This document shows, piece after piece, positions 46,721-48,250 of a stretch of 64,000 nucleotides of DNA. The stretch lies in contig NW_023501057.1 in NCBI RefSeq assembly GCF_014066305.1, forward strand, positions 682,001 through 746,000, written 5' to 3'. The DNA comes from Letharia columbiana (taxonomy: Eukaryota; Ascomycota; Lecanoromycetes; Lecanorales; Parmeliaceae). Below the pieces are notes generated by a model that saw only the letters and a list, made by a program, of their open reading frames with translations, was not told the DNA's origin and ran no database searches. Every line of letters begins with the position of its first letter. The first letter of the stretch is position 1. The translations under genes were made by a program, and so were the position numbers.

Positions 46721-48250
46721 ATGCTCATAACTCAATGGCTGGTCCATTGCGCCCTGGCCTTTGCTACCACGACCTTCTCCCAGCACATTCAATCCCAATT
46801 AAATCTCGGACTCGAGCAGCCGGTCGGGCTCAATGACTTTGAGCTAAGCAAGAATGCGTTGTTCTCGCTACATAAAACTCTGGTCAACATTGAGTCCATC
46901 TCAGGCAATGAGCAAGCCGTTGGAGAATTTCTAGAATCTTACCTCAGATCTCACAATTACACAGTCGAGAGACAAAATGTCGACCCTCTACCCACAGGCT
47001 TACAGCACTCCCAAGCAGGAGAGCTTAGAAGGCACAAGCAGAGATTCAATCTCCTAGCCTACCCTGGAGAAAACCGGCAGACTCCAGTTCTACTGTCGAG
47101 CGTAAGCACCCTTTCGGAGCCATGTTCGCCCGTCCTGTACCCTCTCTTGACTTGAGCCTCAGTACATGTTGCGGAAGCAAAACGCCGATGGTTTTGTTAT
47201 AAAGCTCCCCCGAGTTATCCGGTGACCCAAAACTTGTCTTGGAGTGGCAGTACTGACTCCTGGTGAAGCATATCGACACGGTTCCTCCACACTACGGCTA
47301 TGAGATTCACAGGCATGATCAAATATTCGGCAGGGGAAGTGTGGATGCCAAAGGTTCCATCAGTGCACAGATCTATGCGACTCAAGAGTTGCTCGCTTCT
47401 GGAGAAATCTCCGCTAATGATGTCTCCCTTCTCTTCGTTGTTGGGGAAGAGACAGGGGGCGATGGAATGAGAAAGGTCAACGACCTTGAGATGGAATGGC
47501 AGACCGTCATCTTCGGCGAACCGACAGAGCTCAAACTCGCGACTGGACACAAGGGTATTATGATCTTGACGATCAAAGCCCACGGAAAGGCTGGACACAG
47601 CGGATATCCATGGCTTGGCCAGAATGCAAACCACATGCTCATGCCTGCTCTAATTACTTTACAGAAGTTGGCACTTCCAAGCTCCGAGAAGTACGGCAAC
47701 AGCACATTGAATATCGGCCACATGTCAGGTGGGGTTGCTGCCAACGTAATCGCTGAAGAAGCCTACGCAAGGATTGGTATTAGGATTGCTGCTGGATGCC
47801 CGGAAACTGTGAAGAAGTTGGTATCAGACGCTGTAAAGGCGGTGGACGAGGACCTAGAGCTTGATTTCAGTGACGGCAGTTATGGTACGTATTTCAGGGA
47901 CCCACATTTCCTCTTCTGTACCTAACCTGAGAGTCTTGCGACATGTTTTCGGGGTTTCTACTCTGACGGCCTGTTCCAAGGCTTCATATACCCTCTCAGA
48001 TAAGCAACACTAACTGCGAATCTTTACTCCAGGGCCAGTATACATTGACAGTGACGTGGAAGGGTTCGAGACCGTTTCAGTTAATTATGGAACAGATATA
48101 CCGAACCTCAAGGGGAAGCACAAGCGATATCTTTATGGTCCAGGGAGTATCTTGGTTGCTCACTCAGATCACGAGCATCTGAAAGCTAGCCATCTATTGA
48201 CAGCCGTGGAGGGCTACAAGAGGCTTGTGAGGTCTGCTCTAAAGTCGTGA
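46721..48250 (+). CDS. Secreted M20-family metallopeptidase (ArgE/DapE/CPS1 type)
   Basis: Exons 46721-47101, 47269-47884 and 48033-48250 give 404 residues. A signal peptide (MLITQWLVHCALAFATTTFS) begins the protein. The M20 metal-site motifs are SSHIDTVPPHYG (His and Asp), FGRGSVDAKGS (bridging Asp), LFVVGEETGGDGM (catalytic and metal Glu), TVIFGEPTELKLATGHKG and the C-terminal VAHSDHEHLKAS (last His). The dimerisation domain includes HSGYPWLGQNANHMLMPALI. These enzymes remove amino acids or acyl groups with two zinc ions. Both introns (167 and 148 nt) are longer than the local norm and resemble introns of the MFS gene. I took the ATG at 46721 because it starts the signal peptide. Confidence 0.88.
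47102..47268 (+). mobile_element. Possible introner-like element (peptidase intron 1, diverged)
   Basis: This 167-nt intron carries CTGTACC and AGTACATGTTGCGG in the same order as CTGTACC and GCGACATGTTTTCGG in intron 2. It ends with TTGGAGTGGCAGTACTGACT, close to TCGGATAGGCAATACTGACT of MFS intron 4. The middle is longer and poorly matched. Confidence 0.4.
47885..48032 (+). mobile_element. Introner-like element (peptidase intron 2)
   Basis: This 148-nt intron starts GTACGTATTTCAGGGACCCA, then GCGACATGTTTTCGGGG, CTGTTCCAAGGCTTC and the branch region AAGCAACACTAACTGCGAA. It aligns with MFS intron 4 across its whole length with few gaps. Confidence 0.65.

What the first reader, a model, noticed from the sequence alone, without database searches (positions are those of the whole stretch)
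47885..48032. An intron in an unrelated gene 15 kb away aligns with MFS intron 4
The second intron of the M20 peptidase is 148 nt and aligns with the 147-nt MFS intron 4 from donor to acceptor: GTACGTATTT, CCC.(C/G)TATTTCC, GACATGT, TTC.AAGGCT, ATA.GCAA.ACT.ACTGCGAA. The two genes are not paralogues, so sequence homology of the introns alone points to a mobile intron family.
Basis: seen in the sequence. Interest (0 to 1): 0.8.

Follow-up and report, generated by a model that had tools for sequence, protein, structure and literature searches.

The report
Copy-and-paste intron family in lichen fungus
Two introns in unrelated genes are copies of one self-complementary intron that has spread to at least a hundred places in this lichen-forming fungus, so its genes show how new introns can be born by copying old ones.

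Summary
The M20-peptidase intron (148 nt) and the MFS intron (147 nt) align end to end (local score 73; 0 of 5000 shuffles reach it, maximum 31). They belong to a large intron family. One consensus query gave 107 candidates, of which 40 were scored, all near full length at E<1e-25; a second subfamily gave 141, 40 scored. In 254,659 bases held locally, mostly chosen for holding a copy, two profiles find 112 places at E<=1e-3 and none in a reversed control. In 69 clear copies the ends are the splice sites, no target-site duplication stands out, and none follows AG. Neighbouring copies under 1 kb apart lie on one strand in 42 of 43 pairs. The consensus folds as one hairpin; copies closer to the family profile fold better. 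The host is probably a Lecanoromycete (nearest named hit Imshaugia, one protein). This fits fungal introner-like elements and the symmetrical introns of Hypoxylaceae, probably spread as excised intron RNA: a new family in a lineage where my searches found no report, not a new kind of element. Splicing was not tested with RNA; gain rests on distant paralogues.

The parts
47885..48032 (+). Family intron, last intron of the M20 peptidase gene (148 nt, phase 1)
   Evidence: (E=4.7e-29 with the two window copies left out of training)
32666..32812 (+). Family intron, MFS transporter intron 4 (147 nt, phase 2)
   Evidence: (E=3.1e-43, not in training); paralogues lack it; upstream exon matches MFS_1
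32859..33006 (+). Family intron, MFS transporter intron 5 (148 nt), 46 nt downstream of the previous one
   Evidence: E=5.3e-7; E=1.4e-11, second profile; frame reads through after removal
47102..47268 (+). Degenerate family intron, preceding intron of the same M20 gene (167 nt; GTAAGCACCCTTTCGGAG...GGCAGTACTGACTCCTGGTGAAG)
   Evidence: E=9.5e-7, second profile; 0.044 with the first; frame reads through after removal
16294..16439 (-). Family member, subfamily 2 (GTACGTACAGTCCCGAG...), host gene not examined, 3' end approximate
   Evidence: E=2.6e-16
6991..7121 (+). Family member of a third kind (GTACGTTATAATTTCCGAGG...GCCGAAATCATCAAG), ends approximate, host gene not examined
   Evidence: E=3e-6; E=1.5e-10
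25868..25993 (-). Degenerate family member, subfamily 2, ends approximate, host gene not examined
   Evidence: E=1.8e-7
25191..25294 (.). Weak family match; strand unclear because the element is palindromic
   Evidence: E=7e-5 on +, 0.0012 on -
22946..22999 (-). 54-nt intron with sequence like the family's two ends but no central hairpin: possible internally deleted (cropped) copy
   Evidence: E=0.037, model 1-147; E=0.024; frame reads through after removal. Weak, suggestive only

Best explanation
These are introner-like elements: spliceosomal (U2-type) introns that have multiplied as units and inserted themselves exactly, and mostly or wholly in sense orientation, into coding sequence of a lichen-forming fungus. 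Shown here: one family with at least two large subfamilies (147 and 155 nt), copy ends at splice-site sequences, no target duplication that stands out, near-random sites in open frames, a hairpin consensus, better folding in copies close to the family profile, several copies per gene, and paralogues without the MFS introns. Inferred: the mobile form is the excised intron RNA. In the founder copies near-terminal repeats (TTTTCGGAGT with ACTCCGAAAA) pair, hold the two terminal Gs together and protect it. It is then inserted into transcribed DNA, by reverse splicing or during break repair, and copied to DNA. After insertion the hairpin decays while splicing continues, so old copies become ordinary-looking introns.
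For: Homology with controls. Copy number. Of the 40 scored places, 39 start at position 1 of the query and one at 7. Target duplication: 69 copies, k = 2, 3, 4, 5, 6, 8 at all offsets around both ends; directly at the junction 4 matches for k=2 (4.8 expected) and 0, 1, 0, 0, 0 for the longer. Sense frame longer than antisense in 67 of 77 copies. Neighbouring copies under 1 kb apart on one strand in 42 of 43 pairs; the exception involves the strand-ambiguous 25191 match, and one pair is counted twice because C68 and C101 are near-duplicates. Seamless: FAD_binding_3 ends at profile position 305 in the upstream exon and resumes at 306 downstream; Aldo_ket_red runs 2-111 then 114-290. Four MFS paralogues span both intron positions in one open frame. 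Fold z-score median -2.85, below -2 in 48 of 69, correlated with family score (rho -0.50, p 1.4e-5). Consensus of 53 copies folds at -56.8 kcal/mol. Branch-point A lies 19 nt before the 3' end in 55 of 69, which leaves room for the 3' repeat, as described for Xylariales (PMC12403724, section read).
Against: No RNA reads, so splicing is inferred from frames. No close relative's genome was available, so gain against loss rests on paralogues of 26-36% identity. In 10 of 77 copies the antisense frame was the longer one; these were not resolved. Sense orientation could come partly from selection, since an antisense copy in an exon would not splice. Single copies rarely keep an exact near-terminal repeat: 14 of 69 have one of 6 nt or more (longest 11) against 8 of 69 shuffled, all 6 nt (G-U pairs not counted), and four pairs of that helix are broken in 8-23 of 53 copies. 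The hairpin shows no covariation beyond shuffles (84.5% of cells paired, shuffled mean 84.5%), and RNAalifold on 53 copies found no consensus structure. The largest duplication signals at other offsets (3 copies where 0.17 expected for k=3; 11 where 4.55 expected for k=2) were not corrected for the roughly 900 offset pairs tried. The RNA step itself is untested.
Confidence: 0.8

Rival explanations
1. A non-autonomous DNA transposon (MITE-like introner): the inverted repeats are terminal repeats moved by a transposase, and splice sites are carried or taken from the target duplication.
For: Near-palindromic sequence with opposite-strand self matches. Most introner families outside ascomycetes show transposon signs (PMC9860276, passages seen).
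Against: No target duplication stands out in 69 copies. By my reasoning a TA-type duplication inside GTAG would remove four exon bases on splicing, against the exact 305/306 junction of one gene. One-sided orientation in 42 of 43 neighbour pairs. The 30 loci fetched of 142 donor-pattern matches all carry a profile match over at least 136 of 147 positions, so none of those 30 shows a longer element with the same end; the other 112 were not looked at as such.
Confidence: 0.12
2. Gene conversion or tandem duplication spread introns between related genes, or ancient shared introns converged on one sequence.
For: Several genes hold two to four copies close together.
Against: Hosts are unrelated by Pfam. 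Flanking exon columns are near random. Copies up to 94% identical to the consensus sit on different contigs.
Confidence: 0.03
3. Self-splicing introns (group I or II) rather than spliceosomal ones.
For: Strong folding and multiplication.
Against: No Rfam family reaches its gathering score in the window. GT donor and AG acceptor at or near the profile ends in 88 of 92 places, with a CTRAY branch-point motif in 68 of 69 main copies.
Confidence: 0.02

Closest known systems
Introner-like elements of Dothideomycetes (van der Burgt 2012, not seen, known from papers that cite it; Collemare 2015, PMC4457414, abstract and introduction read)
   Same: Similar spliceosomal introns in unrelated genes, several families per genome, stable fold, seamless insertion, copies that decay into regular introns, genes with more than one copy.
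   Different: Lecanoromycetes host. Collemare gives up to 99% identity between copies; here the best reach 94% to a consensus (pairwise identity not measured). PMC8469720 reports that van der Burgt found a preference for AG/GY sites; here 0 of 69 copies follow AG.
Internally symmetrical sister stwintrons and cropped sister introns of Hypoxylaceae/Xylariaceae (Fekete 2021 PMC8469720: abstract, first part of results, most legends, discussion read; Fekete 2025 PMC12403724: abstract, one results section, discussion read)
   Same: Near-terminal inverted repeats with the 3' partner between branch point and acceptor, no target duplication, near-random sites, coding strand, copies nearer the founder more symmetrical.
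   Different: Single canonical introns of 147/155 nt, not [D1,2] twin introns (only 17 of 69 have the G before the donor). No TTTCTAGAAA palindrome in the consensus. More copies than the 36 stwintrons and 12 cropped introns given for Hypoxylon CO27-5.
DNA-transposon introners of algae and other protists (Gozashti 2022, PMC9860276, passages seen)
   Same: Intron families that spread through a genome.
   Different: No target duplication and no sign of a co-opted splice site here. That paper calls ascomycete families outliers with neither TIRs nor TSDs; the consensus here does have imperfect inverted repeats.

Membership tests
Fungal introner-like elements | Similar intron sequences in many unrelated genes | tested here: met
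   hosts by Pfam
Fungal introner-like elements | Spliceosomal signals at the copy ends (donor, branch point, acceptor) | tested here: met
   GT and AG found at or near the profile ends in 88 of 92 places; 4 lacked one
Fungal introner-like elements | Actually spliced in mRNA | not testable with these tools
   No RNA data. Frames or domains continue after removal
Fungal introner-like elements | Stable predicted secondary structure | tested here: met
   z below -2 in 48 of 69, median -2.85; consensus -56.8 kcal/mol. Against: RNAalifold on 53 copies gave no structure
Fungal introner-like elements | Seamless insertion without target duplication | tested here: met
   (69 copies); exact junction in FAD_binding_3, less exact in the other pairs
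Fungal introner-like elements | Recent gain shown by absence in close relatives | tested here: inconclusive
   Only distant paralogues available: four MFS paralogues lack both introns; one monooxygenase match (31%, E=3.5e-4) reads through
[D1,2] sister stwintrons | Two nested introns with an extra G before the internal donor | tested here: not met
   G at -1 in only 17 of 69 copies; a single GT...AG unit
DNA-transposon introners | Target-site duplication | tested here: not met
   69 copies, k = 2-6 and 8 at all offsets around both ends
DNA-transposon introners | Terminal inverted repeats | tested here: inconclusive
   Present in the consensus and as opposite-strand self matches, but imperfect: median self-complement identity 58% against 52% shuffled; exact near-terminal repeat of 6 nt or more in 14 of 69 against 8 shuffled

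The most novel reading that the evidence does not exclude
Excised, hairpin-protected intron RNA has inserted itself into transcribed coding DNA thousands of times in one lichen fungus, producing a sizeable share of its introns, including copies set directly against older copies (AG|GT with no exon between), so that intron birth, multiplication and decay into ordinary introns can all be read in one genome.
Probability: 0.35. Interest if true: 0.75.

Novelty: new member of a known kind. Interest (0 to 1): 0.5.

Why it matters
How new spliceosomal introns arise is an open question, and fungal introner families are the outliers that do not fit the DNA-transposon model. A large family with near-consensus and decayed copies in a lichen-forming lineage, with imperfect inverted repeats but no target duplication and strong orientation bias, gives many events for testing the RNA-insertion models proposed from Dothideomycetes and Xylariales.

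Tried and rejected
Group I/II introns: no Rfam hit at gathering score in the window. Gene paralogy of the hosts: rejected by Pfam. Target duplication: none that stands out. Compensatory covariation of the hairpin: not above shuffles; RNAalifold over 53 copies returned no structure. Longer element with the same end: none among the 30 loci fetched of 142 donor-pattern matches (the profile was trained on many of them). Exact search in viral and prokaryote contigs with the 20-base 3' pattern: 0 matches each. A weak profile hit at 37720-37756 (E=0.092) lies in sequence that I read as coding for a P-type ATPase (recalled motif) and was dropped as chance. Weak site preferences (-5 and -2 pyrimidine, +2 G) may reflect codon composition. 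Of the ten pieces, five gave no Pfam match and two only sub-threshold ones; one of ten gave none; two of four gave none, and the helicase-like piece gave only a sub-threshold match to an unrelated model, so that host name is not supported by a call.

Unbiased copy density: eight places at E<=1e-3 in the 64-kb window would scale to about 6,500 in 52.2 Mb, Poisson range 2,800-12,900, but the window was not a random sample and no random stretch could be fetched, so this is a rough figure.

Full report
Observation. The intron at 47885-48032 and the MFS intron at 32666-32812 align from donor to acceptor. In the window blastn gives 70% over 140 columns, E=5e-11. With ends fixed and dinucleotides kept, none of 5000 shuffles reaches the score (73 against a maximum of 31). 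Profiles trained on copies elsewhere in the genome, with these two left out, find them at E=4.7e-29 and 3.1e-43. By pairwise score alone the next MFS intron (32859-33006) beats shuffles against MFS intron 4 (31, 0 of 5000) but not against the M20 intron (22, 125 of 5000).

Host. The window lies in a 52.2-Mb assembly of 161 contigs. One protein of the window, an amino-acid permease of 476 aa, has its best named match in Imshaugia aleurites at 91%, then Lepraria and Lecanora at 83% and Psora at 80-81%; unnamed records reach 94% (best 120 of 6231 listed, only the 7999 candidates sharing most words scored). Imshaugia is Parmeliaceae, Lecanoromycetes. The species itself was not identified; the rRNA search did not complete.

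Family size. The M20 intron as query finds 6 places, the MFS intron not among them. A typed consensus finds 107 candidates, 40 scored, all 40 near full length with E at or below 2.3e-26 and identity 78-94%. The MFS intron gives 88 candidates, 40 scored. A second subfamily (GTACGTACATTTCGGAG...CTCCGAAATCTGCGTAG, 155 nt) gives 141 candidates, 40 scored, those 40 at E below 1e-39. Counts with reversed-pattern controls are 142 against 21 for the donor (up to 2 mismatches), 364 against 2 for the 3' end (up to 3) and 330 against 87 for the subfamily-2 donor (up to 3). In the 62 merged stretches held locally (254,659 bases, window included, the rest chosen because they hold a copy) two profiles give 112 places at E<=1e-3 and 0 in the reversed control; at E<=1 it is 123 against 2. 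Eight of the 112 are in the window. The profiles were trained on many of these places.

Introns of genes. After removal, the sense frame around the junction is longer than the antisense frame in 67 of 77 copies, shorter in 10. Phases are 21, 23 and 15 for 0, 1, 2 among the 59 with at least 90 nt open on both sides. Exon pieces searched apart show the intron inside or beside domains: FAD_binding_3 137-305 then 306-348, Aldo_ket_red 2-111 then 114-290, RhoGAP 1-58 then 65-144, Peptidase_M20 2-125 then 153-205 (the second below cut-off); for the 2OG-FeII_Oxy gene only the upstream piece matched. In one search, of ten pieces three matched Pfam above cut-off (Asp, Redoxin, PP2C), two below it and five not at all. 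The upstream MFS exon matches MFS_1, the downstream piece nothing.

Insertion. 69 copies with clear ends were compared at all offsets around the junctions for k = 2-6 and 8. At the junction itself 4 of 69 share two bases (4.8 expected), and 0, 1, 0, 0, 0 share 3, 4, 5, 6, 8. Larger local excesses exist at scattered offsets (for example 3 copies against 0.17 expected) and were not corrected for the number of offsets. Flanks are close to random; the strongest departures are pyrimidine at -5 (p=0.00018) and -2 (p=0.0016), and AG precedes 0 of 69 copies where 4.4 were expected by composition. Four MFS paralogues (26-36% identity) read without interruption across the positions of both MFS introns; a fifth match starts after the first position. 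One monooxygenase match does so too (31%, E=3.5e-4); the other rows there are ambiguous or do not reach the junction. Family members cluster in genes: 43 neighbour pairs lie under 1 kb apart, 42 on one strand (one pair counted twice through near-duplicate contigs C68 and C101, and pairs within one gene are not independent).

Structure. The majority consensus of 53 copies folds end to end at -56.8 kcal/mol with the near-terminal helix TTTTCGGAGTC/GACTCCGAAAT. Single copies fold better than shuffles in 48 of 69 cases by z below -2, and more so in copies close to the family profile; that profile was built from near-consensus copies, which weakens this point. Exact near-terminal repeats of 6 nt or more survive in 14 of 69 single copies against 8 of 69 shuffled. 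Pairing across 53 copies is 84.5% of cells against 33-47% when one side is slid, yet equal to within-column shuffles, so the hairpin is inherited and decays; nothing shows that it is maintained. The 3' repeat lies between branch point and acceptor; the branch A is 19 nt before the end in 55 of 69 copies.

Mechanism. Copy ends equal to splice ends, no duplication, one orientation and coding sites point to the excised intron as the mobile unit. Reverse splicing into transcribed DNA and insertion during break repair are published proposals (PMC8469720 discussion read; PMC12403724 discussion read). My data do not separate them. A DNA transposon is less likely but not excluded.

Literature. One search (introner with Lecanor) found 0 papers. 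In one search (any two of introner, lichen, intron; 25 of 1,637 listed) two listed papers hold both introner and lichen, one on Pleosporales and one on a plant genus by title; neither was opened. One search listed 25 of 294 papers and none by title reports such a family in lichen fungi. The library lacks most subscription papers and I could not open supplements, so the families of PMC9860276 were not checked by species.

Noticed in passing
L088 (G000:C34:217000-217900), positions 254-630: Two family introns stand head to tail with no exon between (254-476 ending CTGACTCCGAAATCTACGTAG, 477-630 starting GTACGTACATTTCGGAG), which would make a zero-length exon or a recursive splice site.
   Followed up: partly
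G000:C12:1109110-1109411, minus strand (L030): A subfamily-2 intron ends one nucleotide before a family donor (...GCGTAG-A-GTACGTATCC...), another nearly back-to-back pair.
   Followed up: partly
window 22946-22999 (-): A 54-nt intron resembles both ends of the family but lacks the hairpin, possibly a cropped copy turning into an ordinary short intron. I read the host as an SHPRH/IRC20-type helicase from its RVHRIGQ motif (recalled; Pfam did not support it).
   Followed up: partly
L080 (C101:41729-44867) and L081 (C68:7572-10710): Two contigs carry the same two family introns at the same spacing with the same flanks: a duplication or a second haplotype.
   Followed up: no
window 53521-53694: Two adjacent direct repeats of 87 nt, 79% alike, a length divisible by three.
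   Followed up: no
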